A stretch of DNA of 64,000 bases from contig NZ_NNRM01000006.1 in NCBI RefSeq assembly GCF_002252525.1, positions 294,790 to 358,789 of the forward strand. Direction: 5' to 3'. The DNA comes from Brucella pseudogrignonensis. Lineage in GTDB: Bacteria; Pseudomonadota; Alphaproteobacteria; Rhizobiales; Rhizobiaceae. The notes under the pieces are model-generated. The model saw only the letters and a program-made list of their open reading frames with translations. It was not told the origin of the DNA and searched no databases. Both the position numbers and the translations under genes were made by a program. Below are positions 27,652 through 56,900 of this stretch, in pieces; the stretch's first letter is position 1, and every line of letters begins with the position of its first letter.

Positions 27652-27754
27652 TCATGCGCACCCCGAAAAGTGCGTAGCGGTTTTCGGATAGGATGCGCAT
27701 CAAATATAAAGATTAGAGCGCCGATCTGATAAAATCAGATCGAAACGCGCTCTA
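27652..27754. repeat. intergenic palindromic repeat supplying the CDF stop codon
   Basis: GCGCACCCCGAAAAGTGCG ... TTTTCGGATAGGATGCGC followed by module 2, TAGAGCG-CCGATCTGATAAAATCAGATCG-AAACG-CGCTCTA. The last three bases (27752-27754), read on the minus strand, are the TAG stop of the cation transporter gene. Confidence 0.8.
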
Positions 27755-28660
27755 GGCAAATGGCACAGAACTCGTTCCAATCGGCAGTTTTGCCTCATCT
27801 TCCGGCTCAACATGGATCACAACACGCGCGCTTTCGATCTGCGTCTTCAGTGCGTCTTCGATTCGGTCGCATATGACATGCGCGTCGCCCACGCTCATTT
27901 CAGCAGCCACAACCAGATGAAACTCGATGAAAGTTACACGGCCTGCAATGCGGGTCTTGAGATCATGAACCTCAATCGCGCCACCGGCATTTGCTGAAAT
28001 AACGTCGCGAATCCGCATTTCCTCGGAAGGTTCGACACCGATATCCATCAAACCCTGTACGGATTTATTGATAACACCCCAACCCTGCCAGAGAATGTTG
28101 ATCGCAACCAGAATAGCGAGCAGCGGATCGAGGATCGCCCAGCCTGTTATGACGGCTCCAACAAGACCAACCAGAACACCGACCGACGTAAACACGTCAG
28201 TCATAATATGCTGACCATCTGCTTCCAAAGCAGGCGAGCGCGCACTGCGACCTGTGCGGATGAGCAGCATGGCCCAGAAAGCATTTATCACAGCAGCGCC
28301 CGTATTGATCGCAAGACCCAGCCACGGCTCATCAAGCTGACGCGGATTCTCAAGCGCAGACCATGCTTCTTTTGCAATCAAAAGCGCCGCAATCGTAATC
28401 AGTACGCCTTCGACAACTGCCGAAATATACTCTGCTTTATGATGGCCAAACGGGTGGTTTTCATCCGCTGGCTTATAGCTGACACTGATCGCCCACCAGG
28501 CGCCAAGTGCCGCAATCACATTGACGATGGATTCCAGAGCATCCGAATAGAGTGCCACGGAGCCGGTCACTGCATAGGCCAGATATTTCAGCCCCATTAC
28601 GCCCAGCGCAACAGGAATCGACCAAGCGGCGAGCCGCCGAACTTTTACACTCGCGTCCAT
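27752..28660 (-). CDS. cation diffusion facilitator (CDF) metal exporter
   Basis: About 302 residues. Inner-membrane antiporter of divalent metals (Zn, Fe, Mn, Co are usual). The metal site of helix 2 is seen as SVALYSDALES and that of helix 5 as ALEADGQHIMTDVFTSVGV. PFGHHKAEYISAVVEG is the family loop. A cytoplasmic domain with IEVHDLKTRIAG follows. ATG 28660 is preferred over GTG 28663 because AAGG is better spaced. Its TAG stop comes from a repeat end. Confidence 0.88.
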   Translation of the reverse strand: MDASVKVRRLAAWSIPVALGVMGLKYLAYAVTGSVALYSDALESIVNVIAALGAWWAISVSYKPADENHPFGHHKAEYISAVVEGVLITIAALLIAKEAWSALENPRQLDEPWLGLAINTGAAVINAFWAMLLIRTGRSARSPALEADGQHIMTDVFTSVGVLVGLVGAVITGWAILDPLLAILVAINILWQGWGVINKSVQGLMDIGVEPSEEMRIRDVISANAGGAIEVHDLKTRIAGRVTFIEFHLVVAAEMSVGDAHVICDRIEDALKTQIESARVVIHVEPEDEAKLPIGTSSVPFA

Positions 28661-28976
28661 CACAAACCTTCAGATACTTTAATTCTTATCCCGACAGGCG
28701 GGTTCAGGCTAACAAGAAGCCTATTGCGCATTCACTCCGGCGTGGCCGGTAAGCAGCATTTCGATAGCCGTTCTATAGCCCATAAAATTCAAATTTCGAA
28801 ACCCTGTTTTTTTACTTCGCGCATTTAATTTTCTCTTGCGAATGCAATGCATTACAGTTGCAAATGGTTCGCCAGAGCAGCTCTGAAAAACCATGATTTT
28901 ATAAGGCCATAAACAAAAAACCGGCCACGGTTTTCACCACGGCCGGCTCATTATTTTGCAACTGAGAAAATCAATT
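28661..28976. other. intergenic region upstream of the CDF gene
   Basis: AT-rich stretch that should hold the CDF promoter. Apart from the terminator listed at 28917-28950, no structured element or open frame stands out. Confidence 0.4.
28917..28950 (-). terminator. terminator downstream of trpE(G)
   Basis: GC-rich stem CCGGCC ... GGCCGG with an inner GGT/ACC pair. On the minus strand it ends in a run of six T. It follows the repeat at the trpE end, so trpE transcripts probably run through the repeat before stopping here. Confidence 0.75.
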
Positions 28977-29077
28977 AGAGCGCATCCCGAAAAGTGCGAA
29001 GCGGTTTTCGGAACAAGATGCGCGCAAAAAATAGATAGAGCATTTCCAATGACTCAATCAAAACAGGAAATGCTCTA
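28977..29077. repeat. intergenic palindromic repeat supplying the trpE(G) stop codon
   Basis: Two-module copy: AGAGCGCATCCCGAAAAG ... GATGCGCG, then TAGAGCATTTCC ... GGAAATGCTCTA. The terminal CTA (29075-29077) is the TAG stop of trpE(G) on the minus strand. Module 2 is nearly identical to that at 13646-13687. Confidence 0.85.
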
Positions 29078-31270
29078 GTAATTGCTGCGACGCGCTTTGT
29101 GCTTTGCTGCAAAATGCACCACGACATTTTCGATCATTCGCATCCCCGCATTATGACCAAGCGTCATGATGGATTCGGGGTGGAACTGAACGGCTGCCAC
29201 AGGCTCTTTTTTATGTTCAAAAGCCATGATGACGCCGTCCTCTGTCTCCGCCGTAACCAGAAAATCATCCGGCAGACGTTCAGGATCAGCAAAGATCGAG
29301 TGATAGCGGCCAACCGTTACTTCCTTCGGCAGACCCGAGAAGATGCGTTCAGGCTTTGAAACCCGGATACGCGACGGCTTGCCATGCATCGGAATGCGCA
29401 GCTGACGCAGAGTGCCGCCATAGGCTTCTGCCAAAGCCTGAAGCCCAAGGCAGACACCGAAGATTGGCAGCTGGCGCTTAAGCGCCTTGTCGATGGTCGC
29501 CTTGCAATCGAAGTCTTGCGGTGTACCCGGTCCGGGTGACAGCACAACAAGATCAGGATTAATGCGGTCGAACACTTCTTCGGCGACCGGCGAGCGTACC
29601 GTCGAAACCGTAGCACCCGTCTGGCGGAAGTAATTGGCGAGCGTGTGCACGAAGGAATCTTCGTGATCGACCAGCAGGATCGAAATCCCCTCGCCCACCT
29701 TTGCCGCAACCCGTTCTTCAGCAACCTGATTGCTCTTCTGTGCTTCACGCACAGCAGCGATCATCGCGGATGCCTTCAGTTCGGTTTCTGCTTCCTCCTC
29801 TTCAGGATTGGAATCAAACAGCAGCGTCGCACCGGCGCGGATCTGTGCCACGCCATCCTTGACGCGGATCGTGCGCAGCGTGAGGCCAGTGTTCATGTCG
29901 CCGTTGAAGTGCATCATGCCGATGGCACCGCCATACCATGCGCGTGGGCTACGCTCGTTTTCTTCGAGGAAGCGCATAGCCCAAAGTTTTGGTGCACCGG
30001 TTACGGTTACAGCCCATGCATGACTGAGGAAGCCGTCAAAGGCATCCATACCGTCACGCAGACGGCCTTCGATATGGTCAACAGTGTGGATCAGACGCGA
30101 GTACATCTCGATCTGACGACGACCGATCACCCGCACCGAACCTGGCTCACAAACCCGGCTTTTGTCATTGCGATCAACGTCCGAACACATGGTCAGCTCG
30201 GACTCGTCCTTCTTGGAATTGAGCAGTTTCAGAATCTGTTCCGAATCCGAAATTGCATCTTCACCACGCTTGATGGTGCCGGAAATCGGACAGGTCTCAA
30301 TGCGGCGACCATTGACGCGCACGAACATCTCTGGCGAAGCGCCCACCAGATACTCGTTCTCTCCAAGATTGATGAAGAACGAATAAGGCGATGGATTGAT
30401 CGACTTCAGGCGACGGAAGATTTCCGAAGGGGCCGTGTGACAGCGCTCATAGAAAGTCTGCCCCGGCACGACTTCAAACAGATCGCCGCGCTTGAAGCTT
30501 TCCTTCGCGCGTTCGACCAGCTTGGCATATTCGCCCGGATTATGATCGCCACGCGGCAGATCGCGCTCTGCGGGCTTGAATGGCTGCACCGGTGTCGCCC
30601 GTGCAAGATCATGCGTTGAAGAACCACCGCAGACAAATTCGTAGCGATCCACCCATGCGCGTGCCGAATAGTGGTCGGCCACGAAGATTTCGTCCGGTAT
30701 GAAAAGCACCAGATCACGCTGATCGTCCGGGCGCTTCAACTTGTACTGAATTGGATCGAACTGGAATGCCAGATCATAGCCAAACGCACCGTAAAGTCCG
30801 AGATTTGCATCTTCCTCGGAGAAGAAAAGGCCCACAATCGCGCGCAGCACGGTGAAGACCGAAGGCATACGCGAGCGTTCTTCTTCGGTGAATGTGCCAG
30901 TGGGTTTAGCAATTGTCAGCTCGATAAGATCTTCGTCGGCCTTATCGACCTTCACTTCGGCAAGCGCCTGAACCGTCTTGAGGATCGGGCGCAGCAGGAT
31001 CGTGCCGCGCTTGTTCAGCGCTTCAATACGCATCTGGCGATTGCGGGAGGTAATCACGACTGGCGGATCGACAATTGCCGTGTCCCATCGCGTGTAGCGG
31101 CCGGGATATTCGTAGTTGGAAGAAAAGACCGCGCCTCGCCGCTCATTGAGAGCATCGATATAAGTCTCGATAGCTCCTTTATAAGCAGTCAAATGGCGCA
31201 CACGTTCGACAACAATGCCGCCCGCTGTCTCGTGCGTGAATATCTCGCTATCCGCAATCTTCGCATTCAT
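29075..31270 (-). CDS. trpE(G): fused anthranilate synthase, TrpE and TrpG
   Basis: Converts chorismate and glutamine to anthranilate, the first step of tryptophan synthesis. 731 residues from ATG 31270 ([20 protein letters not shown]). The frame runs on to 31333 but homologues begin here. The TrpE part contains [29 protein letters not shown] and [15 protein letters not shown]. The TrpG part starts near residue 530 ([16 protein letters not shown]) with the nucleophile in [15 protein letters not shown] and the His-Glu pair in [10 protein letters not shown]. The fusion is typical of Hyphomicrobiales. Upstream trpL and attenuator control it. Its stop lies in a repeat. Confidence 0.96.
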
Positions 31271-31362
31271 GACTGGCAATTCCCAAGTGTTATTCGTTAT
31301 CGAGCACTTCCAAAGCTCAGGCCCCTCAACCAAAGCGCATCGTGCTTCGGCTTTTTATTCTA

Positions 31363-31403
31363 GCATGTTGCCCAAAACTGGCTTCCGCTCTTGGGCAACA
31401 TGC
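31363..31403. repeat. 13-bp inverted repeat in the trp leader
   Basis: GCATGTTGCCCAA (31363-31375) and TTGGGCAACATGC (31391-31403) are perfect complements around a 15-nt loop. It lies between the trp attenuator terminator and the trpE start, so it is transcribed only on read-through. It may be a solitary short repeat or a stabilising stem. Confidence 0.7.
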
Positions 31404-31421
31404 GGTGGCATTATTCAAACA

Positions 31422-31498
31422 GCCAAACAAAAAGGCCGCCCGGATAATCCCAGCGGCCTTAACTAAAACGCAAATGCACAAACGCCTGCGTGGCCGCT
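31422..31498 (-). promoter_or_regulatory. trp transcription attenuator
   Basis: Terminator: AAGGCCGC and GCGGCCTT (plus-strand arms 31432-31439 and 31453-31460) followed on the minus strand by TTTTTGTTTGG. Antiterminator: AGCGGCC just after the leader stop (31498-31492) is perfectly complementary to GGCCGCT (31458-31452) inside the terminator arm. This is the classic mutually exclusive arrangement. In Sinorhizobium the released leader RNA (rnTrpL) also acts in trans. Confidence 0.9.
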
Positions 31499-31499
31499 T

Positions 31500-31547
31500 T
31501 TAGCGAGCCCACCACCAGATTTTTGTGTCAATGCGCGAAATGTTCAT
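31500..31547 (-). CDS. trpL: trp leader peptide with three consecutive Trp codons
   Basis: 15-residue frame MNISRIDTKIWWWAR, TAA. Tandem TGG TGG TGG codons followed by Ala-Arg are the same design as the Sinorhizobium meliloti leader peptide. The candidate promoter places the transcription start at or next to the ATG, so translation is probably leaderless, as in S. meliloti. It senses charged tRNA-Trp for the attenuator. Confidence 0.93.
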   Translation of the reverse strand: MNISRIDTKIWWWAR

Positions 31548-31554
31548 GGCGATA

Positions 31555-31583
31555 CTGTTAGCCTTCCCTCGCATCGCTTGCAA
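31555..31583 (-). promoter_or_regulatory. candidate trpL promoter
   Basis: TTGCAA (31583-31578), 17-bp spacer, TAACAG (31560-31555). Start would be near 31548, immediately before the trpL ATG. Assigned by eye from spacing and position only. Confidence 0.5.
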
Positions 31584-31679
31584 CTGGAAAATTCAAAGCC
31601 TCAATTCACTGATGTAGACTTGTCAGAATTGACCGTATTTCAGCGGTGCAAATTTTTTAGAATGTTTTATCCCGCACAA

Positions 31680-31840
31680 AAAGAAAATCCGGACTGCTTT
31701 AAATAGTCCGGATTCTCCCTAGTCCTTGATAAGGACAAACTGACTAAAGGTTGGAGTACCTTTTCCGGCCCGCCGTGGGTATAACACCTGCCAAAAGTCT
31801 TAACTCTATGCGTGCAATATCACTTTAAGTACACATCTTT
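31680..31840 (-). ncRNA. candidate small RNA upstream of trpL, about 160 nt
   Basis: On the minus strand a strong promoter-like sequence is followed by an unannotated, structured stretch with no good reading frame. It ends in a textbook terminator: AATCCGGACT and AGTCCGGATT arms followed by TTTCTTTTTG. A second hairpin, GTCCTT-ATC-AAGGAC (31722-31736), precedes it. The terminator cannot serve any known minus-strand gene upstream, because the next gene there (Lrp family) is on the plus strand. Rhizobial trans-acting RNAs look like this, but I cannot assign a named family. Confidence 0.65.
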
Positions 31841-31844
31841 ACTA

Positions 31845-31874
31845 CTATGGATTGCACATTTCCGCAACTGTCAA
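31845..31874 (-). promoter_or_regulatory. promoter of the candidate small RNA
   Basis: CTTGACA at the -35 position (TTGACA 31874-31869), a 17-18 bp spacer and CCATAG (31850-31845) at -10. This resembles the rhizobial housekeeping pattern CTTGAC-N17-CTATAT. Start predicted near 31838-31840. Confidence 0.6.
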
Positions 31875-32042
31875 GTCTATCGTCGTAGCCTTCTACCAAA
31901 CCGTGTAATGCAGCTGTAATTTAAGTATGTTTCAAAAATTTTGCCTTGCGTGCGAGACGGATTTCGGATTCATTTCGCAAGCAAATCATTTATAAACTAA
32001 CAATAAAAAGCCGCCATCGCAGGCGGTCGAGTGGGGACACCA

Positions 32043-32504
32043 ATGAAGAATCTTGATGTAATGGACAGGAGTATTCTGCACGCCCTTCAAGAGAACGGGC
32101 GACTGACCAATACTGAACTTGCCGATCGTATTAATCTGTCTCAGACCGCCACCGCAGAACGCGTCAAACGCCTCACACGCGAAGGCTATATTCTCGGCTA
32201 TTCTGCCCATCTGTCGCCAAAGATGCTTGATCGATCGATGCTGGTTTTCATTGAAATCAAGCTTGATCGCACCACGCCAGAGGTCTTTGAAACCTTCTCC
32301 GCCTTCACGCGCGGCAATCCCGATATTCTCGAATGTCATATGGTTGCAGGCGGCTTCGATTATCTGATCAAGGCACGCGTCTCCGATATGGATCACTATC
32401 GCCGTTTTCTCTCGGAAGCACTTCTATCCCTGCCGGGCGTAAGGGAATCCCACACCTACGCCGTAATGGAAGAGGTCAAGGAAACGTCACACATCGCTGT
32501 GTGA
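32043..32504 (+). CDS. Lrp/AsnC family transcriptional regulator
   Basis: 153 residues. An N-terminal winged helix (LDVMDRSILHALQENGRLTN, ELADRINLSQTATAERVKRL) and a C-terminal RAM ligand domain (AGGFDYLIKARVSDMDHYRR). ATG 32043 has GGGGA at good spacing. A GTG twelve bases upstream is less likely. It stands alone. The plus-strand upstream region 31550-32030 carries the opposing small RNA and trpL. Effector unknown, amino acids are usual. Confidence 0.88.
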   Translation: MKNLDVMDRSILHALQENGRLTNTELADRINLSQTATAERVKRLTREGYILGYSAHLSPKMLDRSMLVFIEIKLDRTTPEVFETFSAFTRGNPDILECHMVAGGFDYLIKARVSDMDHYRRFLSEALLSLPGVRESHTYAVMEEVKETSHIAV

Positions 32505-32599
32505 CGTCGCTATCGTCGGCTATCGACCTAAATTTATTGCCAGCGTGATGACAGTATAGATCGGCTCATTGCCGATACAGGCTTGCCAATAACTATTTA

Positions 32600-32613
32600 C
32601 GGGTATATACCCG
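32600..32613. promoter_or_regulatory. palindromic operator at the marR start
   Basis: Perfect 14-bp palindrome CGGGTATATACCCG ending four bases before the marR ATG. The size and position suit autorepression by a MarR dimer. No second copy is seen before the MFS gene, which suggests one marR-MFS transcript. Confidence 0.6.
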
Positions 32614-32617
32614 CATC

Positions 32618-33019
32618 ATGTCAAATCCATGTTTCTGCATCCTTCTGCGGCAGGCCGCGAGAAAATCATCCAGCGTTTACGACAAGGCGCTGGCGCCGCT
32701 CGGCATCAATGTCGCGCAGTTCAGTCTGCTGCGAAAAATTGCGCGTGCGCAATCGATCTCATTGACCGAGCTTGCCCGGCTTGCCGACCTTGATCGATCA
32801 ACAATGGGCCGCAATGCGAAGGTGTTGCAGCGTATGGATCTTATCGAACAGACATCGGGCGAAGATCATCGTGAGACGCACATCGCTTTGACGTCGACAG
32901 GCCGCGACCTTGTCGAGCGCGGTGGGCCGCTCTGGGATCAGGCACAAGATGAAATAGAAGCAAAACTTGGCAGCGAAGGCGTGGAGCAATTGCTTACCCT
33001 TCTCCGCGCCTTTGACTGA
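32618..33019 (+). CDS. MarR family regulator
   Basis: 133 residues. Winged helix: GINVAQFSLLRKIAR, SLTELARLADLDRSTMGRNA and a wing with GEDHRETHIALTSTGRDLV. Two Cys at positions 5 and 7 (NPCFCILLRQAAR) lie in the dimer helix and could sense oxidants or thiol-reactive compounds. That is inference. It has a palindrome right at its start and a major facilitator gene 100 bp downstream that it probably controls. Confidence 0.87.
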   Translation: MSNPCFCILLRQAARKSSSVYDKALAPLGINVAQFSLLRKIARAQSISLTELARLADLDRSTMGRNAKVLQRMDLIEQTSGEDHRETHIALTSTGRDLVERGGPLWDQAQDEIEAKLGSEGVEQLLTLLRAFD

Positions 33020-33119
33020 AAACAATGACCAAAGCCCATTGAGCCTGTAACTGGCCAACTGGGTTGACCTTCAACTTTGCGGCTGTTCAAAAATCAGCCA
33101 GTCTCCGAAAGCGCCGAAG

Positions 33120-34412
33120 ATGATTTCTGCCAGCCTTGCAAGCTTTCTTCAAAAACGAAACATCCACTATGGATGGGTTGTTGCTGCCATCACGTTTCTG
33201 ACCATGCTTGCAACCGCTGCAGCCATGGGCTCGGCGGGCATCCTGATCGAGCCATTGCAGAAGGAATTCGGCTGGACCAATGCCAATATTTCCTTCGCCA
33301 TGGCGCTGCGTCTGGTGCTGTTTGGTTTGATGGGGCCTTTTGCTGCTGCTTTCATGAACCAGTTTGGCCTGCGACGCGTCGTGTCCGCAGCACTCGTCAT
33401 GATCGCCTGCGGACTGGTCGGCTCGATCTTCATGACTGAAGAATGGCAGATGGTCGGCCTTTGGGGCATCGTTATCGGCCTTGGCACCGGCATGACCGCA
33501 CTTGTCCTGGGTGCGACTGTTGCTGCTCGCTGGTTTGAAAAGCGCCGGGGTCTCGTGGTTGGCCTCATGACAGCCAGCAATGCAACCGGCCAACTTGTTT
33601 TCATGCCGATCCTCGCCAGTGTGAGCCAGAATATCGGCTGGCGCACGTCGCTAACCATTGTCGTCGGCTTTCTTATAGCAGCACTCGTGCTGGTGCTTGC
33701 CCTGATGCGCGATCATCCCGCAGATATCGGGCTGAAGCCTTATGGCCGAACCGCCCCTCTCCCTGCCGCAGAGCCTAAGAAAAGCTTTGCCTCGCTGCTC
33801 GCTTCCCCGCTGATTACCTTGCGCGAAGTATCGTCCACATCAACCTTCTGGGTGCTGTTCGTCACCTTCTTCGTCTGCGGCTTTTCCACCAACGGTTTGA
33901 TCCAGACCCACTGGATCGCATTGTGCGGCGATTTCGGCATCGTACCTGTGGGTGCAGCAGGCATTCTGGCCGTCATCGGTGCTTTCGATCTCATCGGCAC
34001 CATCGGCGCAGGTTGGCTTTCCGACCGCTTTGACAACCGCTGGCTGCTGTTCTGGTTCTACAGCCTGCGCGGATTGTCACTGATCTACCTGACCTTTACC
34101 GATTTCACGCTCTATGAACTGGCACTCTTTGCCGTCTTCTATGGTCTCGATTGGGTTGCAACCGTACCACCAACGGTCAAGCTTGCCGCAGAACGTTTCG
34201 GTCCAGAAAAGGCTGGCATGGTGTTCGGATGGGTGTTCACCGGCCACCAGGTGGGTGCAGCTGCAGCCGCAGCTTTCGCAGGCTTCGTCCGCACCGATTA
34301 TGGCAGCTATACACCTGCCCTCATTCTGGCAGGGGCGATGTGTTTCGCAGCAGCCGCCATGGTGTTCATCATCAGCAGGCCAGCTCCAAGACCCGCTTTG
34401 CAGGCATCATAA
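33120..34412 (+). CDS. major facilitator superfamily transporter
   Basis: 430 residues with about 12 membrane helices. HYGWVVAAITFLTMLATAAA at the start and the loop GWLSDRFDNRW recall the monocarboxylate/oxalate-formate antiporter group. Substrate not determinable. It follows the MarR gene on the same strand. A weak ribosome site precedes ATG. It could be an efflux pump for a compound sensed by MarR. Confidence 0.87.
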   Translation: MISASLASFLQKRNIHYGWVVAAITFLTMLATAAAMGSAGILIEPLQKEFGWTNANISFAMALRLVLFGLMGPFAAAFMNQFGLRRVVSAALVMIACGLVGSIFMTEEWQMVGLWGIVIGLGTGMTALVLGATVAARWFEKRRGLVVGLMTASNATGQLVFMPILASVSQNIGWRTSLTIVVGFLIAALVLVLALMRDHPADIGLKPYGRTAPLPAAEPKKSFASLLASPLITLREVSSTSTFWVLFVTFFVCGFSTNGLIQTHWIALCGDFGIVPVGAAGILAVIGAFDLIGTIGAGWLSDRFDNRWLLFWFYSLRGLSLIYLTFTDFTLYELALFAVFYGLDWVATVPPTVKLAAERFGPEKAGMVFGWVFTGHQVGAAAAAAFAGFVRTDYGSYTPALILAGAMCFAAAAMVFIISRPAPRPALQAS

Positions 34413-40987: not shown

Positions 40988-42037
40988 ATGACAATCATTG
41001 CACTGGAAGATGTCAGCATCATTTTCGGCAAAAATGTCGATAACGCGCTGGAACTCGCGGACCGGGGTGCTTCGCGTTCGGAAATTCAGGCTGAAACCGA
41101 TCTCGTTCTGGGCGTGCATGACTGCGCGCTCAATATTCAGGAAGGCGAGATTCTCGTCCTGATGGGCCTCTCAGGCTCTGGAAAATCAACGCTCCTGCGG
41201 GCCATCAACCGGCTCAACCCGATTTCACGCGGCCGTGTGCTGGTGCGTGATGGCGAGCGGACTATCGATGTCGGCAAAGCAGATCGGGGAACGCTTCGCC
41301 ATCTGCGCACGGAACTCGTTTCAATGGTGTTTCAGCAGTTTGGTCTGCTACCATGGCGCACGGTTGAGGAAAACGTCGCGTTTGGGCTGGAAATCTCCGG
41401 TATGCGCAAGGACGAGCGGTTGGCACAAGCGCGTAAGCAGCTTGAGCTGGTGGGCTTGCAGGACTGGGCCAAGCGCAAGGTAGGCGAACTTTCCGGCGGT
41501 ATGCAGCAGCGCGTCGGCCTGGCGCGCGCCTTTGCAACCGGCGCACCGATTCTGCTCATGGATGAGCCGTTTTCCGCGCTCGATCCGTTGATCCGCACGC
41601 GTTTGCAGGATGAGCTGCTGGCTTTCCAGTCACGGCTCAAGAAGACAATCGTTTTCGTGAGCCACGATCTCGACGAAGCCATGAAAATCGGCAATCGTAT
41701 CGCCATCATGGAAGGCGGTCGCATCGTTCAATGTGGTACGCCGCAGGAAATTCTTCTGCAGCCGGCAGATCAATATGTCGCCGATTTCGTAGCGCATATG
41801 AACCCGCTCGGCGTTTTGTGTGCAGGCGATATCATGACGCCATTTGACCGCACTGCCGCACCTCGCCCCTTTGCCGCAACCGCTCGACGCGAAACCCTTA
41901 TTCGCGACCTGATGGGCGCAGTTGCGGATAGCAGCGGTGATGTGGGGATTGTCGAGAATGGCGCCATCATCGGCAAAATTGCCGCCGATGACATTGTGCG
42001 CGCTCTTGCCTGGCACCAGCAACGCGGTCAGCATTAG
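40988..42037 (+). CDS. choV: choline ABC transporter ATPase
   Basis: 349 residues. Walker A GLSGSGKSTL, Q-loop VFQQFGLLPWRTV, signature LSGGMQQRVGLARA, Walker B ILLMDEPFSALDP, and a C-terminal CBS-like regulatory part (residues about 275-345). Energises choline import with ChoX and ChoW. The TAG stop (42035-42037) is the first three bases of a palindromic repeat. Confidence 0.93.
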   Translation: MTIIALEDVSIIFGKNVDNALELADRGASRSEIQAETDLVLGVHDCALNIQEGEILVLMGLSGSGKSTLLRAINRLNPISRGRVLVRDGERTIDVGKADRGTLRHLRTELVSMVFQQFGLLPWRTVEENVAFGLEISGMRKDERLAQARKQLELVGLQDWAKRKVGELSGGMQQRVGLARAFATGAPILLMDEPFSALDPLIRTRLQDELLAFQSRLKKTIVFVSHDLDEAMKIGNRIAIMEGGRIVQCGTPQEILLQPADQYVADFVAHMNPLGVLCAGDIMTPFDRTAAPRPFAATARRETLIRDLMGAVADSSGDVGIVENGAIIGKIAADDIVRALAWHQQRGQH

Positions 42038-42139
42038 AGCGCATCCCGAAAAGTGCGAAGCGGTTTTCGGAACAAGATGCGCGTAAAGACAAATGGATAG
42101 AGTACCGTGCGCCCTTATGGGCGCACAAAGGGCGCTCTA
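42035..42139. repeat. intergenic palindromic repeat supplying the choV stop codon
   Basis: TAGAGCGCATCCCGAAAAG ... TTTTCGGAACAAGATGCGCG, linker TAAAGACAAAT, then a second module around TAGAGTACCGTGCGCCC-TTAT-GGGCGCAC and ending GGGCGCTCTA. Its first TAG is in frame as the choV stop. Confidence 0.85.
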
Positions 42140-50086: not shown

Positions 50087-50210
50087 TATAGCATTTCCAG
50101 CAAAAGTGCGAAGCGATTTTGCGTCGGATAATGCGTAAAAACAAACAGTTACAGCGGTTCCAACGATTCTTTCTTAACTGGACCGCTGTAAACGCATATG
50201 TCGCGCTCTA
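50087..50210. repeat. intergenic palindromic repeat (subfamily B) reaching the mnmA stop codon
   Basis: TATAGCATTTCCAGCAAAAG ... TTTTGCGTCGGATAATGCG, TAAAAACAAA, then AGCGGTTCC ... GGACCGCT and a final CGCGCTCTA. The last CTA (50208-50210) is the TAG stop of mnmA on the minus strand. The last 25 bp may be a separate short end. Confidence 0.75.
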
Positions 50211-51404
50211 AGCTGCAGATACCTTTGAGGTATTGGCAACCAGACGACGCAGCATTTCTTCTGCCTGCGGTTCACGTTCGGAGCGACCGATGAAACCGCC
50301 GCCAAACACACGCGCAGTGTTCGAATCATCTGAATAGAGAACGCACGCCTGTCCGGGTGCGATACCGCTTTCGCCGTCGACCAGCTCCACCCAGGTCTTG
50401 CCATCTGCATGATGCAGAACAGCTGGACGTGGCGGACGCGTCGAGCGAACCTTTGCGAAGACTTCAATACCGCCCTTTGGCAGCGCGTCCAGCGCGCCAT
50501 CGCCGAGCCAGTTAACATCGCGCAGGAAAACCTTATGGGTTTCAAGGGCTTCACGCGGGCCAACAATCACACGCGTATTGGCAGCATCGAGATGCACCAC
50601 ATAAAGCGGCTCACCGGTTGCAACACCAATTCCGCGGCGCTGGCCGACCGTATAATGAACAATGCCATCATGGCGACCGAGCACGCGACCGTCGATATGA
50701 ACGATATCGCCCGGCGTTGCCGCTTCAGGCTTCAGCTTGGAAATGATGTCGGAATATTTGCCCTGCGGAACAAAGCAGATGTCCTGGCTATCCTGCTTCT
50801 TGGCAACAGTCAGGCCCATTTCTTCGGCGATTTCGCGAACCTGTGCCTTTGGCAGATGGCCCAGCGGGAAACGCAGATAATCGATCTGGTCCTGCGTGGT
50901 CGCAAACAGGAAGTAGCTCTGATCACGGTCCGAATCGACCGGACGGAACATCGCACGATGGTCGCCATTCTGACTGCTGCGGATATAGTGGCCGGTTGCC
51001 AGCGCATCGGCACCAAGTTCACGCGCAGTCTGCAGAAGATCGGCAAACTTTACAGTCTGATTGCAGGATACGCATGGAATCGGCGTTTCACCGCTCACAT
51101 AGGAATTTGCAAATGGATCGATCACGGCTTCACGAAAGCGTGCTTCATAATCCAATACATAATGAGGAATGCCGAGGCTTTCCGAAACGCGGCGGGCATC
51201 TTCAATGTCCTGGCCAGCGCAGCAAGAACCGGCGCGATGCACTGCCGCACCATGATCGTAAAGCTGCAGCGTTACGCCAACAACATCATAGCCTTCACGT
51301 TTGAGAATGCCTGCCACAACAGAGGAATCGACGCCGCCCGACATGGCGACGACAACGCGCGTGTCTTCCGGCTTTCCCGGTAGATCGAGGCTGTTCAGGC
51401 TCAT
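50208..51404 (-). CDS. mnmA: tRNA-uridine 2-sulfurtransferase
   Basis: 398 residues. Makes s2U34 in tRNA-Lys, Glu and Gln. The PP-loop is [16 protein letters not shown]. The two catalytic Cys are in [15 protein letters not shown] and [11 protein letters not shown]. Also typical: GHYIRSS and [17 protein letters not shown]. Its TAG stop is part of a repeat end. Confidence 0.95.
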
Positions 51405-51644
51405 GATTATTTCCAGCTTCCGGGCAAATGCCCTGCTTTTAAAAGTTTAGGTTTGCGCCCTATATAGGTCACACAACGGGTACTTGCCAAGATGTCGCAG
51501 CAAAAACAGTGGCCGTTTTGCGGCATTGCAACCACAAATTCCCGTGAGACTTTTTATCAAATGCCTGCCAAGACAGGTTTTTTTATGACTTTCTTTCGAA
51601 ATAAGTCATTTTTTTGCAAGTGTTACCAGAGAGTTACCGCCTGT

Positions 51645-51659
51645 TTAGGTAATTCTTAA
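51645..51659. promoter_or_regulatory. CtrA-box-like site upstream of sciP
   Basis: TTAG-GTAATTC-TTAA, one mismatch from TTAA-N7-TTAA, 57 bp before the sciP ATG. In Caulobacter sciP is activated by CtrA, so the site makes sense. The rest of the 312-bp gap (51405-51716) between mnmA and sciP shows no other clear element. Confidence 0.55.
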
Positions 51660-51716
51660 AGCTGTGGCGTTAGTCTCGGTCTCGATTAGGTCCTTGAGTG
51701 TTGTGTAGAGAGTACA

Positions 51717-51992
51717 ATGACCGATCTGACAAGACCGCGTATAAAATATGTTATCGGTCCTGATGGCAGTCCACTGACCATCGCGGACCTCCCGCCCGCC
51801 ACTACAAGGCGCTGGGTCATTCGCCGTAAGGCTGAAGTTGTCGCCGCTGTACGCGGTGGGCTTCTCAGCCTTGAGGAAGCATGTCAGCGTTATACCTTGA
51901 CGGTGGAGGAATTTCTTGGCTGGCAGTCCTCGATCGATGAGCATGGTCTCGCCGGTCTCAGGACCACACGTATCCAGCAGTATAGACACTAA
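51717..51992 (+). CDS. sciP: CtrA inhibitor SciP
   Basis: 91 residues, the whole DUF1153/SciP fold: RIKYVIGPDGSPLTIADLPP, RRWVIRRKAEVVAAVRGGLL and YTLTVEEFLGWQSSID, ending GLRTTRIQQYRH. SciP binds CtrA (and DNA) and blocks CtrA-dependent transcription in the cell cycle. It lies in the same cluster as ctrA and chpT. The GNAT gene follows after a strong terminator. Confidence 0.95.
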   Translation: MTDLTRPRIKYVIGPDGSPLTIADLPPATTRRWVIRRKAEVVAAVRGGLLSLEEACQRYTLTVEEFLGWQSSIDEHGLAGLRTTRIQQYRH

Positions 51993-52034
51993 AAATCTGC
52001 CGGTTTCTCCGGAAAAGGCAGATACGCAAATTAA

Positions 52035-52068
52035 GCCCCGGCCGGTTAACCCGGCCGGGGTTTTTCTT
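52035..52068 (+). terminator. terminator of sciP
   Basis: CCCCGGCCGG-TTAAC-CCGGCCGGGG followed by TTTTTCTTT. A very strong GC-rich hairpin. Confidence 0.95.
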
Positions 52069-52121
52069 TGGCCGTTCATCACTATATCAATGAGAACTGA
52101 AACCCTCATGGGGAGAGCAGA

Positions 52122-52418
52122 ATGGCCGAAAATATTCAGATCCAGAAAGCCGACAGCACCGATAGCGGTCGTTACTTTGCCAATATCGATGGCGACGAAG
52201 CGGAGATGACTTATACAAAGCTCGGGCCTGCACTCATCTCCATCGATCACACCTTCGTGCCCGATTCCATGCGTGGCAAAGGTGTAGCGCAGGCCTTAGC
52301 GCTAAATGCTGTCGAAGACGCCCGTAAAACCGGCTGGAAAATCATCCCACGCTGCAGTTTCATGCAGGCGCAGGTCAAGCGCCATCCAGATTGGTCAGAC
52401 GTTATAGCCAGTGATTGA
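52122..52418 (+). CDS. short GNAT acetyltransferase (YjdJ-like)
   Basis: 98 residues, the small GNAT type (PF14542). AEMTYTKLGPALISIDHTFV, MRGKGVAQALALNAVEDARK (acetyl-CoA loop) and IIPRCSFMQAQVKRHP are present. GGGGAGAG precedes ATG. Target unknown. Confidence 0.85.
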   Translation: MAENIQIQKADSTDSGRYFANIDGDEAEMTYTKLGPALISIDHTFVPDSMRGKGVAQALALNAVEDARKTGWKIIPRCSFMQAQVKRHPDWSDVIASD

Positions 52419-52420
52419 TA

Positions 52421-53350
52421 TCAGCGCAGATCGCGGATGCGACTGGCAAGGCTCTTTGGGCTGGCATTTTTGCCCTTGCCAACTGAACCTTCAGCGTCAA
52501 GCACCTTATGGATAGGCGAGTTTTCGCCTTCCTTCTCTGCGGTAGCTGCAACCATGCGCGCGGCCAAGGCTGCCATCTCTTCGCGAAGCGCCGCATTTTC
52601 TTTTGAGAATTCTGCGGGTTGCTCTGTTTCGGCGTTTGATGCCGAACCCTTGCGGGTAAAGCGCTCCAGCTTTTCCTGAGCGTCGGAGAAATCGGTAATC
52701 AGCTTGTCGAGTTTGGCCTGCAATTCAGTATTGCGGCGCTTCTCGCTCTTTAACTCAGTCTGTGCTGTCGTCAATTGCGTCGAAACCTCATTATAGCGGG
52801 CAGATGCATCTTTACGTTCCCGACGCATTTCGCTCATCTCATTCATCAGACGACCATGTTCGGTCTCTTTGGCACTCATTTCGATACGTAGCGTATCGGC
52901 CAGTTCTTCGAGAGATGAAAGATGTTTCTGCAGCCGCTCAACCTCGGCCTCAACAATTTCTGCTTTTTCAGCAGCAGTGTCGCGTTCCGATATCGTTTCT
53001 GCGACCTGCTTTGCACGTTCCGCCAGCGTCTCTTTTAGCTGTGCGATATCATTTTCCAATGAAGCGAAACGCTTGAGTTCATCATTCTGCTTGCCGAGCT
53101 CGATCAGCTGGCCGGATGATTTATCACGTTCAAGCTTGAGCTGCTGTGCAAGCTTGCTGGCCACCACCGCATGTTCGGCTCTCAGGCCATCACGATCCGC
53201 TCTGATTTCAGCAAGCGTTATCGGCAGTTCGGCTTGAACCTGCCGACGCGCCAGAAAGAAAGCGCGGCGCCAAACCGAAGGGCCAAGCAGAACCACGACG
53301 AAAACCGCCACGAGAACGCCAAGTATGAAAATGAGCGCAGACTGGATCAC
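52421..53350 (-). CDS. membrane-anchored coiled-coil protein
   Basis: 309 residues. One N-terminal helix (LIFILGVLVAVFVVVLLGP), then about 200 residues of predicted coiled coil rich in Glu, Lys, Leu and Arg (RDGLRAEHAVVASKLAQQLK, AEKAEIVEAEVERLQKHLSS, MSEMRRERKDASARYNEVST), and a flexible end (KGKNASPKSLASRIRDLR). I recognise no domain. It starts 102 bp after eipA on the same strand. A structural or scaffolding role at the envelope is possible. Confidence 0.75.
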   Translation of the reverse strand: MIQSALIFILGVLVAVFVVVLLGPSVWRRAFFLARRQVQAELPITLAEIRADRDGLRAEHAVVASKLAQQLKLERDKSSGQLIELGKQNDELKRFASLENDIAQLKETLAERAKQVAETISERDTAAEKAEIVEAEVERLQKHLSSLEELADTLRIEMSAKETEHGRLMNEMSEMRRERKDASARYNEVSTQLTTAQTELKSEKRRNTELQAKLDKLITDFSDAQEKLERFTRKGSASNAETEQPAEFSKENAALREEMAALAARMVAATAEKEGENSPIHKVLDAEGSVGKGKNASPKSLASRIRDLR

Positions 53351-53376
53351 GGCTTTGTCACTAAACGGGAAAATGG

Positions 53377-53399
53377 ACCAGCCAAAAGACTTGGCTGGT
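53377..53399 (-). terminator. hairpin after eipA
   Basis: ACCAGCCAA (53377-53385) pairs with TTGGCTGGT (53391-53399), 5-nt loop. On the minus strand CCATTTTCCCGTTT follows. Moderate terminator between eipA and the coiled-coil gene. Confidence 0.5.
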
Positions 53400-53452
53400 T
53401 GTTATTCATAATGGAGCGGCGTTCCGCTTTCCAGCTCGAACGCCAGTCCAAA

Positions 53453-54055
53453 TCAGAATGGGTTCCAGGTCGGAGCCGCAGAAAGCTTCAGATAACCAAT
53501 ATTGACGCCAAGGCGGGCACCAACGCCCGTACGAATTGGCACCAGCATGATATTCTGACGCTTTAGCACGTTGAAGCCCGCTCCGGCGATCACATAAGCA
53601 GAACCTGCAACGCCGGCATAACGCCCATAAAGGCTCTGAATATCGTCGAGATTATAGACGAGCATCATGACGCGCGAGCCTTGCCCGCCAAAATCCCAGC
53701 CGAGCGACGGACCCTGCCAGAACGTGCGATGATCGCCAGCATTCTTGGTGTAGAGCGTACCTTCGCCATAGGTGAGACCACCTATGAAGGCACCAGAGCC
53801 CTCTTCACCCAGAATATAGCCATTGGGAAGTCCGAAGCTCTGGAACGCCTTTTCGACTGCGCTGGCGATACCGCCAGATGTCGAACCGAAGAACCGGTGT
53901 CCGGATTCAACAACTTCCTCGGCCGAATATGTGTTGCTGCTCTGTGCCTGCGCTTTGTGCGGCACGGCGGTGATGGAGATCAGAAAGGCCGCAAAGAACG
54001 CTACAATATACGCCGCGTTGCGGAACCTGATCTGCGACAGGGACGGTATGGCCAT
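53453..54055 (-). CDS. eipA: DUF1134 envelope protein EipA
   Basis: 200 residues with a Sec signal ending near AQAQS. The mature domain GHRFFGSTSGGIASAVEKAF, GYILGEEGSGAFIGGLTYGE, GWDFGGQGSRVMMLVYNL and PIRTGVGARLGVNIGYLKLS is DUF1134. In Brucella the member EipA is a periplasmic protein needed for envelope integrity and reported to be under direct CtrA control. That fits its place beside chpT and ctrA. It diverges from chpT. Confidence 0.88.
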   Translation of the reverse strand: MAIPSLSQIRFRNAAYIVAFFAAFLISITAVPHKAQAQSSNTYSAEEVVESGHRFFGSTSGGIASAVEKAFQSFGLPNGYILGEEGSGAFIGGLTYGEGTLYTKNAGDHRTFWQGPSLGWDFGGQGSRVMMLVYNLDDIQSLYGRYAGVAGSAYVIAGAGFNVLKRQNIMLVPIRTGVGARLGVNIGYLKLSAAPTWNPF

Positions 54056-54150
54056 CTATAATTCCTTTTGCCTACCAGCTTCTCTGTCTGACGGCCCTGT
54101 TAAAAGCCTGGCAGCGCTTCTTGCGAGCACTTTGCCGAATCGCGCGTAGT

Positions 54151-54165
54151 TTAACCGCGAATTTA
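54151..54165. promoter_or_regulatory. CtrA-box-like site between eipA and chpT
   Basis: TTAA-CCGCGAA-TTTA, one base short of TTAA-N7-TTAA, 96 bp before the eipA ATG and about 200 bp before chpT. Could serve either gene. It agrees with published CtrA control of eipA. Confidence 0.5.
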
Positions 54166-54368
54166 TTGTCTAAATCTTTAAGCGCCGAAATTGGCTTTAG
54201 AATGGCGGCAAAAAACAGCTTTGTTGCGGCAAATGGATGTCGCGTGTATCCAGATTCCCAAGGTTCCCGGTGGTGATTCGTCGGGATTTATGCTCATCAA
54301 CTGATTGCCGCCTGACATTCGATTACAAAGTCGATTCGCAGAGCCGGTTCGCGCCTGGAGAAAACACC

Positions 54369-54998
54369 ATGCCATTGCCCGTTACCCTGTCCGCACTCGA
54401 TCTTGGTGCGCTTCTGTGCAGCCGGATCTGTCATGACATCATCTCGCCGGTTGGCGCCATTAACAATGGTCTCGAACTGCTCGAAGAAGGTGGCGCGGAC
54501 GAAGACGCAATGGCGCTCATCAAGTCGAGCGCTCGCAATGCTTCGGCCCGTCTTCAGTTTGCCCGCATCGCGTTCGGTGCAGCCGGTTCCGCAGGCGTAC
54601 AGATCGATACCGGCGATGCGCAGCATGTCGCAACCGAATATTTCAAGAATGAAAAGCCGGAACTGACCTGGGAAGGCGCCCGCGTTCTGCTGCCAAAGAA
54701 CAAGGTCAAGCTTTTGCTCAACCTGCTTCTGATCAGCAATGCAGCCATTCCACGCGGCGGTTCGCTGGCTGTTCGCCTCGAAAATGGCGACACCAATCCA
54801 CGTTTTGTCATCACCGCCAAAGGTCGGATGCTGCGCGTACCGCCAAAGTTCCTCGAACTGCATTCAGGCGCAGAGCCGGAAGAGCCAATCGACGCCCATT
54901 CGGTTCAGCCATACTACACACTGCTTCTGGCTGAAGATGCAGGCATGACCATTTCCATCCATGCGACTGCCGAAGACATCGTCTTCGCCGCAGAATAA
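54369..54998 (+). CDS. chpT: histidine phosphotransferase ChpT
   Basis: 209 residues from ATG 54369 (MPLPVTLSALDLGALLCSRI), with TGGAG upstream. The frame is open 44 codons earlier but family members start here. The phospho-accepting His22 lies in CSRICHDIISPVGAINNGLE, then LLEEGG and SARNASARLQFARIAFG. Passes phosphate from CckA to CtrA (and CpdR). It converges with ctrA. Confidence 0.94.
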   Translation: MPLPVTLSALDLGALLCSRICHDIISPVGAINNGLELLEEGGADEDAMALIKSSARNASARLQFARIAFGAAGSAGVQIDTGDAQHVATEYFKNEKPELTWEGARVLLPKNKVKLLLNLLLISNAAIPRGGSLAVRLENGDTNPRFVITAKGRMLRVPPKFLELHSGAEPEEPIDAHSVQPYYTLLLAEDAGMTISIHATAEDIVFAAE

Positions 54999-55014
54999 GA
55001 AGCATTTCTTTAAG

Positions 55015-55048
55015 CAAAAGGCGCAGGGTAAAACCTGCGCCTTTTTTG
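55015..55048 (+). terminator. terminator of chpT
   Basis: AAAGGCGCAGG ... CCTGCGCCTTT followed by TTTTG. Confidence 0.9.
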
Positions 55049-55061
55049 TTTGCGGCCTCAT

Positions 55062-55094
55062 ATAAGAAAAGGCCCCGCTTACGCGGAGCCTTAT
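55062..55094 (-). terminator. terminator of ctrA
   Basis: Plus-strand arms AAGGCCCCGC (55069-55078) and GCGGAGCCTT (55083-55092). On the minus strand TTTTCTT follows. It lies about 45 bp after the ctrA stop. Confidence 0.8.
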
Positions 55095-55139
55095 TCAATC
55101 AGGTATTTCCAGCAGAACTGCTAAGCGCTTTAAAAACGC

Positions 55140-55841
55140 TTATGCGCTTTCACGCAGTTCTGTGCCATCTGGCTCGCGCAGCACATAGCCGCGACCCCAA
55201 ACGGTTTCGATGTAGCTCTGGCTGCCGGAAACGGCATCAAGCTTCTTGCGCAGCTTGCAGATAAACACGTCGATGATCTTCAGCTCAGGCTCGTCCATGC
55301 CGCCATAAAGGTGGTTGAGGAACATTTCCTTGGTGAGCGTCGTGCCCTTGCGGAGCGAAAGAAGCTCGAGCATCTGATATTCTTTGCCGGTCAGGTGAAC
55401 GCGCTGACCACCAACCTCAACCGTCTTGGCGTCGAGGTTAACAATCAGGTCGCCAGTGGTGATGACCGACTGGGCGTGGCCCTTGGAACGACGAACAATC
55501 GCATGAATACGGGCGATCAGCTCGTCCTTGTGGAACGGCTTCGTCATGTAGTCGTCTGCACCGAAGCCCAGACCGCGAACCTTGTCCTCAATGCCAGCCA
55601 TGCCGGAGAGGATAAGGATTGGCGTCTTGACCTTCGAAAGGCGCAAGGTACGCAGAACTTCATAACCGGACATGTCCGGCAAGTTCAGGTCCAGCAAGAT
55701 GATGTCGTAATCATAAAGCTTGCCGAGATCGATGCCTTCTTCACCCAGATCGGTGGTGTAGACATTGAAGCTCTCGGACTTCAGCATCAATTCAATGCTC
55801 TGTGCGATAGCACTGTCGTCTTCAATCAAAAGGACGCGCAT
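55140..55841 (-). CDS. ctrA: cell-cycle response regulator CtrA
   Basis: 233 residues. The receiver domain has the acidic pocket IEDD, the phosphoacceptor Asp51 in [17 protein letters not shown], and the switch Lys in [15 protein letters not shown] winged-helix DNA-binding domain follows ([52 protein letters not shown]). Master regulator of division, flagella and envelope genes that binds TTAA-N7-TTAA. Upstream GANTC sites suggest control by CcrM methylation. Confidence 0.97.
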
Positions 55842-55942
55842 ATCTTATCCCCTTTCCGCCGCTGATCAGTTTTCCCTCACGGCAGCTGACGGAACTGTCG
55901 TTGCCTTAGCATGAAGGTGCCTGCAAATGGTTAACAAAATAT

Positions 55943-56075
55943 GATTCCGGTTGGCAAGTACAATTCTTTCCAGTTTAGAAAAAACTCTTATCCAACTGAA
56001 TCATATGTAATTATTCGACTCATTAGACCCTTATGAATCACATTAAGAAAACTTCCTAAGTGATTCATTTGACTC
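55943..56075. promoter_or_regulatory. cluster of six GANTC (CcrM) sites upstream of ctrA
   Basis: GANTC at 55943, 55998, 56017, 56035, 56062 and 56071, six in 133 bp where about 0.5 would be expected by chance. CcrM methylates GANTC, and in Caulobacter methylation state sets ctrA P1 activity. The region is AT-rich and starts 102 bp before the ctrA ATG. It lies within the 532-bp gap to the fliJ-like gene. Confidence 0.75.
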
Positions 56076-56109
56076 TAGCTTTCACCTGTTACTCAAAAAC
56101 CACACCAGA

Positions 56110-56124
56110 TTTACCGAGCCTTAA
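56110..56124. promoter_or_regulatory. CtrA-box-like site between ctrA and the fliJ-like gene
   Basis: TTTA-CCGAGCC-TTAA, one mismatch from consensus. Could autoregulate ctrA (269 bp) or act on fliJ (250 bp). Single-site evidence only. Confidence 0.4.
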
Positions 56125-56373
56125 TTCCTAACGCGTATGATTAACGTTGCCGGTAAAGGAATGGTTACCAAAAGGGCGAAATCTTAACTTTTTGTTTCGC
56201 TTATTGAGGCTGTTCTTAAAATTGGTGGCAGAGCTGAAGCCCTTAAAAGCCAGGCATTGCAACGGATTTCACGGCATATTGTGGGAAAACCGCCCGCATA
56301 TATGCCTGTTAATAAAGTCGGGGGGAACGCCCCAACGTTAAGAGAGCTGGTTGGTGTTCAAGGAGTATTGCGT

Positions 56374-56766
56374 ATGAAGCCACGTGAAAGCCTCGTCAGG
56401 CTGAAATTGTTCCAGGTGAAGGAAAAGCGCCGTCAGCTGGGCCAACTTGACTTGATGATCGGCGAGTTCGAGCGGATGGCCGGAGAACTCGACGCCCAGA
56501 TTCTATCGGAAGAAAAGAAGGCAGGCATCACTGACATCAATCATTTTGCCTATCCGACCTTCGCAAAGGCAGCGCGCCAGCGGCGCGATAACCTGTTTGG
56601 TTCGATTCGCGATCTGATGCAGCAGAAGGAAGGCGCCGAGGCCGAACTGGTTGTGGCTGAGGCTGACCTTGCGAAAGCCGAAGCACTGGAAGAGCGCGAC
56701 GGCGTAAAAGCCCCGCGTGATGTAGTGGAACGCCCGGTCAATCAGCGCCGCGCGATGATCGGCTAA
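56374..56766 (+). CDS. FliJ-like flagellar export chaperone
   Basis: 130 residues from ATG 56374 (MKPRESLVRLKLFQVKEKRR), with AAGGAG upstream. The open frame starts earlier at 56257 but lacks a ribosome site there. Almost wholly helical and charged (LDLMIGEFERMAGELDAQIL, ARQRRDNLFGSIRDLMQQKE, AELVVAEADLAKAEALEERD), typical of FliJ/YscO stalk proteins. No other flagellar gene is visible in the window, so it is an orphan beside ctrA. Confidence 0.75.
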   Translation: MKPRESLVRLKLFQVKEKRRQLGQLDLMIGEFERMAGELDAQILSEEKKAGITDINHFAYPTFAKAARQRRDNLFGSIRDLMQQKEGAEAELVVAEADLAKAEALEERDGVKAPRDVVERPVNQRRAMIG

Positions 56767-56859
56767 GATTACGAACTGCGAAGTCTCTGGATTTCGGAAA
56801 AATGAGGCGCGGCTTCTGCGGGGGAGCCGTGCCTTTCGTGTTTTTAGCCTTGGGGGCGC

Positions 56860-56900
56860 TAGAGCGCCATGCGCCCTTCCGGGCTCACAAAGGCGCTCTA
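56860..56900. repeat. short repeat module supplying the WYL gene stop codon
   Basis: 41 bp with perfect ends TAGAGCGCC and GGCGCTCTA. The middle has GCGCCC-TTCC-GGGC(T). Similar to the end of the repeat at 42102-42139. Bases 56898-56900 (CTA) are the TAG stop of the WYL regulator on the minus strand. Confidence 0.8.

What the first reader, a model, noticed from the sequence alone, without database searches (positions are those of the whole stretch)
27752..56900. Palindromic repeats supply the stop codon of five unrelated genes
The repeats end in TAGAGC (or GCTCTA). In five places the TAG of that end is the in-frame stop of the adjoining gene: choV (42035-42037, +), CDF exporter (27752-27754, -), trpE(G) (29075-29077, -), mnmA (50208-50210, -) and the WYL regulator (56898-56900, -). 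The repeats thus join gene 3' ends exactly at the stop. This suggests insertion into or next to stop codons, or selection to keep only such insertions. Every C-terminus here ends where the repeat begins.
Basis: seen in the sequence. Interest (0 to 1): 0.72.

Follow-up and report, generated by a model that had tools for sequence, protein, structure and literature searches.

The report
Jumping repeats that replace stop codons
Small jumping DNA repeats in an Ochrobactrum-type Brucella genome land on a short motif that can itself be a stop codon, and because their own ends spell a new one they can split a gene's stop signal without changing its protein.

Summary
At mnmA the TAG is not a repeat end; another kind of repeat lies 17 bases away. 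The repeats are two-hairpin elements of about 105 bp, probably the Bru-RS/CIR repeats of Brucella. Relatives without the element show insertion into the stop codon itself: at CDF and trpE(G) B. grignonensis has TAA at the same codon and its flank resumes after the element. Of 25 orthologous stop sites with an apparently empty relative, 23 have the stop at the same codon in at least one. Insertion sites follow YTAR, which can read TAA or TAG on both strands. IS630-family elements of the genus share the terminal bases (TA|GAGC) and the target, so they are the likely movers. The element's first base after TA is G or A, so a stop is remade. A sister family ending TAT/TAC is a natural control: among full-length copies of the window's genome 19 of 57 TAR ends lie in a gene's frame, all as its stop, against 1 of 49 TAY ends. 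Five elements end two convergent genes each. Target choice plus selection explains most of it; no stop-seeking is needed.

The parts
27653..27754 (-). Two-hairpin element, 102 bp counting both target dinucleotides, whose end supplies the TAG stop of the CDF exporter gene; its far dinucleotide is TG here, TA in B. pituitosa
   Evidence: Empty site in B. grignonensis: TAA at the same codon, 25 of 26 flank bases resume after the element; same insertion in B. pituitosa
27752..28663 (-). Cation-efflux (CDF) gene ending at the element
28976..29077 (-). Type 1 element (TAGAGC...GCTCTA) supplying the TAG stop of trpE(G)
   Evidence: TAA at the same codon in B. grignonensis and B. pituitosa; flank resumes in register after one TA (16 and 15 of 26 bases)
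29075..31333 (-). trpE(G), chorismate-binding + glutamine amidotransferase
40988..42037 (+).
42035..42139 (+). Type 1 element with another second hairpin, supplying the TAG stop of the ABC gene
   Evidence: Stop at the same codon without this element in B. grignonensis (TAG) and B. gallinifaecis (TAA); one codon later in B. pituitosa; a different element at the same stop in B. rhizosphaerae. No clean far junction
56860..56900 (-). Single-hairpin 41-bp element with TA at both ends, supplying the TAG stop of the WYL regulator
   Evidence: stop at the same codon (TAG, no element) in B. rhizosphaerae, an element one codon later in B. grignonensis. No clean far junction
56898..57575 (-). WYL-domain regulator gene
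50087..50190 (+). Type 2 element (TATAGC...GCTGTA), 17 nt beyond the mnmA stop; the mnmA TAG at 50208-50210 is NOT a repeat end
13583..13687 (+). Type 1 element not at a stop codon
24924..25028 (+). Type 2 element not at a stop codon
40005..40072 (+). Decayed type 1 element without intact ends

Best explanation
The repeats are non-autonomous transposable elements (MITEs) that insert at the dinucleotide TA within YTAR and duplicate that TA. Full-length IS630-family insertion sequences of the same genus share their terminal bases, target and duplication and most likely move them (inferred). A stop codon TAA or TAG preceded by a pyrimidine is a YTAR site. Insertion there splits the codon after TA; the element's own first base (G or A) completes a new TAG or TAA, so translation ends at the same residue. 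YTAR as a motif is its own reverse complement and both element ends are of the same kind, so this works in both orientations and on both strands, and one element can end two convergent genes. Insertions at other places (promoters, coding frames, or with ends TAT/TAC at a stop) are mostly removed by selection. Shown: stops at the same codon in relatives without the element, resumed flanks at about ten sites, YTAR preference, rarity of TAY ends in frame. Inferred: the IS630 transposase as mover, and selection as the cause of the distribution.
For: Empty sites: trpE(G) and CDF. By my reading, the flank resumes right after the element at 10 distinct stop sites, with the far TA intact at 5 and changed by one or two letters at the others; clear non-stop cases are. 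23 of 25 orthologous stop sites with an apparently empty relative have the stop at the same codon in at least one of them; 52 of 61 such orthologues have the same C-terminal length. Offsets: 42 of 108 ends exactly at 0. Target: a pyrimidine precedes the TA at 89% of 160 ends of non-stop copies against 49% at intergenic TAs; in full-length copies Y before in 23 of 24 (type 1) and 29 of 29 (type 2), R after in 22 of 24 and 26 of 29. IS630 type: of 32 PF13358 loci, 10 show a terminal inverted repeat pair beginning GAGC or AAGC, and all 10 are flanked by YTA...TAR (several are copies of one element). Some repeat ends equal an IS end over ten bases (AAGCATGTCG, GAGCGCGTCC). IS5-type elements of the own genome have GGC ends where found, 3 of 10 loci. 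Natural control: TAR ends 19 of 57 in frame, all as the stop; TAY ends 1 of 49, p = 3e-5.
Against: Two stop sites have only TGA, which is no TA target, in the empty relatives, and 17 of 61 empty orthologues carry TGA, more than the 13-15% seen for orthologues of TAA/TAG genes. Two of 25 sites changed the C-terminus by 3-5 codons; 85% equal length is a little below the 93% of orthologous pairs in these stretches. Many comparisons give no clear far junction, choV and WYL among them, and the trpE(G) flank matches only 15-16 of 26. 'Empty' means no repeat found by BLAST within 40 nt; at CDF in B. rhizosphaerae the stop still reads TAGAGC and may be a decayed copy. With a YTAR null only two of four stretches are significant (own p=0.0017, B. 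pituitosa 0.008; B. grignonensis 0.087, B. rhizosphaerae 0.42). Most repeat ends share only about 4-6 bases with a given IS end, and 22 of 32 IS630 loci gave no GAGC/AAGC pair (5 gave other candidate pairs, 17 none). Genes come from a home-made hexamer caller.
Confidence: 0.9

Rival explanations
1. Chance: TAG is a common stop and TAGAGC a common hexamer.
For: TAGAGC as a bare hexamer is hardly over-abundant in the window (24 matches, 17 +/- 4 expected, 6 of 100 shuffles as high), and the mnmA case is such a coincidence.
Against: 42 of 108 ends at offset 0, no other offset above 3; 14 of 24 full-length type 1 copies of the own genome have an end at a stop.
Confidence: 0.01
2. The elements landed inside or downstream of genes and the TAG is a new stop made by truncation or extension of the protein.
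For: Two of 25 sites differ by 3-5 codons from their orthologues.
Against: 23 of 25 sites have the stop at the same codon in at least one apparently empty relative; 52 of 61 orthologues have the same C-terminal length (3469 of 3742 for orthologous pairs of the four stretches in general).
Confidence: 0.04
3. The transposition itself is attracted to stop codons or to translation termination, beyond the YTAR rule.
For: Type 1 full-length copies between convergent genes are at a stop in 10 of 13, while 45% of YTAR sites in element-free convergent regions are stops (p=0.02).
Against: Type 2 copies use the same YTAR sites and are as often between convergent genes, yet their TAY ends are almost never in frame with a gene, which fits selection after insertion. 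The remainder after the YTAR and convergent-gene nulls is small.
Confidence: 0.06
4. Copies at stops are kept because they work there, for example as bidirectional terminators or 3' mRNA stabilisers.
For: Hairpins directly after the stop (predicted fold of one copy of each type); 13 of 24 and 17 of 29 full-length copies lie between convergent genes, where only 10% of element-free intergenic YTAR sites are.
Against: Avoidance of promoters predicts the same distribution; no expression data; no Rfam match in window 27000-57700; the same stop bears different elements or none in sister species.
Confidence: 0.2

Closest known systems
Bru-RS1/Bru-RS2 repeats of Brucella (Halling and Bricker 1994; not read, known from passages of PMC3163539, PMC2266754, PMC2267715, PMC10800456)
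   Same: Same genus, 103-106 bp palindromic intergenic repeats, two related types, many copies.
   Different: Their published letters were not available here. The passages read speak of them as hot spots of IS711 insertion; none of those passages describes their own target, duplication or use as stop codons.
CIR repeats (Chen and Shapiro 2003; not read, known from sections 4 and 7 of PMC2229807)
   Same: About 110 bp, two hairpin arms joined by a linker, GANTC motif, TA at the termini, reported in Caulobacter and Brucella.
   Different: PMC2229807 lists no TIR and a target duplication '?', no intragenic copies, and says more information is needed on mobility. Here a TA duplication, a YTAR target, a short shared end and stop-codon sites are found.
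RUP of Streptococcus pneumoniae with IS630-Spn1 (passages of PMC2229807 and PMC3049150)
   Same: 107-bp element with TA target whose ends resemble those of an IS630-family element.
   Different: Stop-codon replacement is not described for RUP in the passages read.
BOX repeats of S. pneumoniae (section 9 of PMC3049150)
   Same: In 36 genes the repeat encodes the stop codon, without strong evidence of truncation: the closest precedent found.
   Different: That section gives no target-site or empty-site explanation; other sequence and host.
IS711/IS6501 of Brucella (passages of PMC2266754 and PMC3163539)
   Same: YTAR target with TA duplication.
   Different: 842 bp, with its own transposase and 20-bp imperfect inverted repeats; its ends were not compared here. 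That it belongs to the IS5 family is recalled, not tested.

Membership tests
MITE of IS630/Tc1-mariner type | Target-site duplication of TA | tested here: met
   Comparisons with empty sites; far TA intact at 5 of 10 clean stop sites by my reading
MITE of IS630/Tc1-mariner type | Ends shared with an autonomous element of the genus | tested here: met
   GAGC/AAGC ends in YTA...TAR in 10 of 32 IS630-family loci; agreement of 4-6 bases for most copies, ten for a few
MITE of IS630/Tc1-mariner type | Mobilised by that transposase | not testable with these tools
   No transposition data
Bru-RS | 103-106 bp palindromic repeat of the genus Brucella, many copies | tested here: met
   Full-length copies about 105 bp; 104 and 71 end-pattern matches in the own genome; type 1 end pattern in 33 of 34 other genomes of the genus
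Bru-RS | Sequence identity with published Bru-RS1/Bru-RS2 | not tested
   Published sequences not held
CIR | Two hairpin arms with linker | tested here: met
   Predicted fold of one copy of each type
CIR | GANTC methylation motif | tested here: met
   12 of 24 type 1 and 24 of 29 type 2 full-length copies, 15% of random 105-mers of the contig; absent from half of type 1
IS711-derived | Ends shared with IS711 | tested here: inconclusive
   IS5-type (PF13340) loci of the own genome have GGC ends in the 3 of 10 where ends were found; IS711 itself not examined

The most novel reading that the evidence does not exclude
The terminal purine and the YTAR target form a self-preserving pair: insertion at YTAR remakes YTAR at both junctions, so the element is stop-safe on both strands and offers fresh targets for further insertions. 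The purine end was favoured because it opens stop codons, especially those of convergent genes, as harmless landing sites that pyrimidine-ended sister elements cannot use.
Probability: 0.3. Interest if true: 0.75.

Novelty: new variant of a known kind. Interest (0 to 1): 0.62.

Why it matters
It offers a mechanism (TA duplication at YTAR, IS630-type ends) for repeats whose mobility a 2007 overview (PMC2229807) left open, and explains how a transposable element can enter stop codons without harm. It warns annotators that a repeat can be the stop codon, and gives a natural experiment (purine-ended against pyrimidine-ended families) for measuring selection on stop-codon loss.

Tried and rejected
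Rfam search of window 27000-57700: no match at the gathering score. IS5/PF13340 as partner: 10 own loci, ends found in 3, none beginning GAGC. A first strict empty-site finder kept 77 of 296 indels at 55 places, but its rule of best flank identity left junctions ambiguous, so exact TA/TA/TA was scored at only 3 of 55; I read the junctions by eye and repeated the test from the stop codon. The plain-TA null overstated the excess and was replaced by YTAR and convergent-region nulls. The zero count of TAY ends at offset 0 is partly true by definition, since a TAY codon cannot be the called stop; one search repeats the test without that flaw.

Rows dropped: offset counts use only ends with intact TANAGC (172 ends from 195 merged elements), 15 and 21 elements without an intact end were left out in O, A, B and C, and one search puts them back as non-stop. 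Searches use only the 53 full-length copies of the own genome. One search found 113 intact left ends in the own sequence that was fetched; searches counted 104 and 71 pattern matches (the list was cut), and places with broken ends were not fetched on purpose. Of the 80 loci, 14 entered the counts as loci; L031, L032 and L035 were replaced by longer stretches of the same contigs. Copies in sister species are related by descent; the single-genome tests avoid this.

Papers: PMC2229807, sections 4 and 7 and passages; PMC3049150, section 9 and passages; PMC3163539, PMC2266754, PMC2267715, PMC10800456, PMC2677664, PMC2759123 and PMC5896051, passages only; all others, search listings only. No paper describing stop-codon insertion of Bru-RS/CIR was seen in the listings (open-licence papers only; the 1994 and 2003 originals were not read).

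Full report
What was claimed and what is there. All five TAGs are in-frame stops. In four (CDF, trpE(G), choV, WYL) the TAG is the outer end of a repeat; the fifth (mnmA) is not. Its stop region aligns through in B. pituitosa and B. grignonensis without a repeat there, and the nearest repeat, of another type, lies 17 nt away. Other copies in the window are not at stops.

The host. The closest relatives of the TrpE(G) region among the loci returned are Ochrobactrum-type Brucella species (98% protein identity to B. grignonensis). The window lies in a 5.53-Mb genome in 53 contigs.

The elements. Two families were used: type 1 (ends TAGAGC or TAAAGC) and type 2 (usually TATAGC...GCTGTA), about 105 bp when full-length, with two predicted hairpins and a linker, and a GANTC motif in 12 of 24 and 24 of 29 full-length copies. 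The own genome has 104 and 71 matches to a 19- or 20-base end pattern with up to 2 mismatches, and none to the reversed control. The type 1 pattern (1 mismatch) is in 33 of 34 other genomes of the genus, in the one genome of another genus of the family (one match), and in 0 of 24 genomes of other families. The second hairpin varies between copies, so the elements look like mosaics.

More than chance. I compared collinear stretches of 359-380 kb of the own genome and three relatives, plus 14 shorter genus loci. Of 172 intact repeat ends 108 have a gene 3' end within -60..+300, and 42 of these lie exactly on the stop; no other offset has more than 3. The 42 are 27 orthologous sites.

Insertion into the stop. 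At CDF, B. grignonensis has TAA at the same codon, and 25 of 26 flank bases resume after the element in the window and in B. pituitosa; the far dinucleotide is TA in B. pituitosa and TG in the window. At trpE(G), B. grignonensis and B. pituitosa have TAA at the same codon and the flank resumes in register after one TA, with only 16 and 15 of 26 bases equal. By my reading the flank resumes directly after the element at 10 distinct stop sites, with the far TA intact at 5; at others, choV and WYL among them, no clean far junction was found. Of 25 stop sites with an apparently empty relative among the four stretches, 23 have the stop at the same codon in at least one, and 52 of 61 such orthologues have the same C-terminal length. 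Two sites changed by 3-5 codons, two have only TGA in the empty relatives, and 17 of 61 carry TGA. 'Empty' means no repeat found by BLAST within 40 nt; at CDF in B. rhizosphaerae a decayed copy may remain.

Target and partner. At 160 ends of non-stop copies a pyrimidine precedes the TA in 89% (background 49%), and full-length copies have Y before in 23 of 24 and 29 of 29, R after in 22 of 24 and 26 of 29. YTAR with TA duplication is also the target published for IS711, another element of Brucella (passages of PMC2266754, PMC3163539). IS630-family matches (PF13358) were found in 28 of 40 genomes searched, own included. Of the 32 loci fetched show a terminal inverted repeat pair beginning GAGC or AAGC, and all 10 sit in YTA...TAR; several are copies of one element. 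Five others gave different candidate pairs and 17 none. A few repeat ends equal such an IS end over ten bases, most over four to six. The IS5-type elements have other ends where found (3 of 10).

Why the stop survives. YTAR can read TAA or TAG on both strands. An element beginning with G or A turns the split codon into TAG or TAA. Type 2 copies, mostly ending TAT/TAC, use the same target and the same places (17 of 29 between convergent genes; type 1 13 of 24) but would destroy the stop. Among full-length copies of the one genome, 19 of 57 TAR ends are in frame with a called gene, all as its stop; 1 of 49 TAY ends is, and there the reading frame runs on for five codons from the TA (p = 3e-5). 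Of type 1 full-length copies 14 of 24 have an end at a stop, against 0 of 24 type 2 copies with two TAY ends (the latter partly true by definition). Five elements of the own genome end both convergent neighbours, three of them full-length; in L023 one neighbour is only a predicted 66-aa gene.

How much is left to explain. Against a plain TA null the excess is 4- to 7-fold. With YTAR as the null and elements without intact ends counted as misses it is significant in two of four stretches. In element-free regions between convergent genes 45% of YTAR sites are stops, against which type 1 has 10 of 13 (p = 0.02). So target choice, avoidance of other places and the purine end explain most of it; a modest remainder may be selection, retention of ends that serve as stops, or function.

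Known and new. The repeats are most likely Bru-RS/CIR elements, though their published letters were not compared. PMC2229807 (2007) lists CIR with unknown target duplication and unclear mobility. BOX repeats of pneumococcus encode the stop codon of 36 genes without strong evidence of truncation (PMC3049150, section 9), so a repeat acting as a stop is not unheard of. What I did not find in the listings of nine searches is the empty-site evidence, the YTAR and IS630 link, and the purine/pyrimidine natural control.

Noticed in passing
L019, L023, L336, L276, L343 (own genome): One element supplies the stop codons of both convergent neighbouring genes; in L276 and L343 it is a single hairpin of about 48 bp.
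   Followed up: partly
Orthologous stops of a 1162-aa gene and a 218-aa gene in the four stretches: Sister species carry different element types at the same stop codon, suggesting repeated insertion or exchange of hairpins.
   Followed up: no
window 56860-56900: A 41-bp second-hairpin module stands alone with TA at both ends, so single hairpins may move or remain by themselves.
   Followed up: no
L002, about 1605: One element's end is followed directly by what looks like another sharing a TA, as if junctions serve as new targets.
   Followed up: no
L123, right end of the type 2 element (own genome): The one TAY end found in frame with a gene: the frame continues five codons from the TA into the element.
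   Followed up: no
L243 (own genome, C26): An IS630-family element of about 1.05 kb with ends TA|AAGCATGTCGC; two repeat ends in the compared sequences share its first ten bases.
   Followed up: partly
window 1954-2298 and 3852-4196: A pair of stretches 81-82% identical, 1898 bp apart, inside two neighbouring long ORFs on the minus strand.
   Followed up: no
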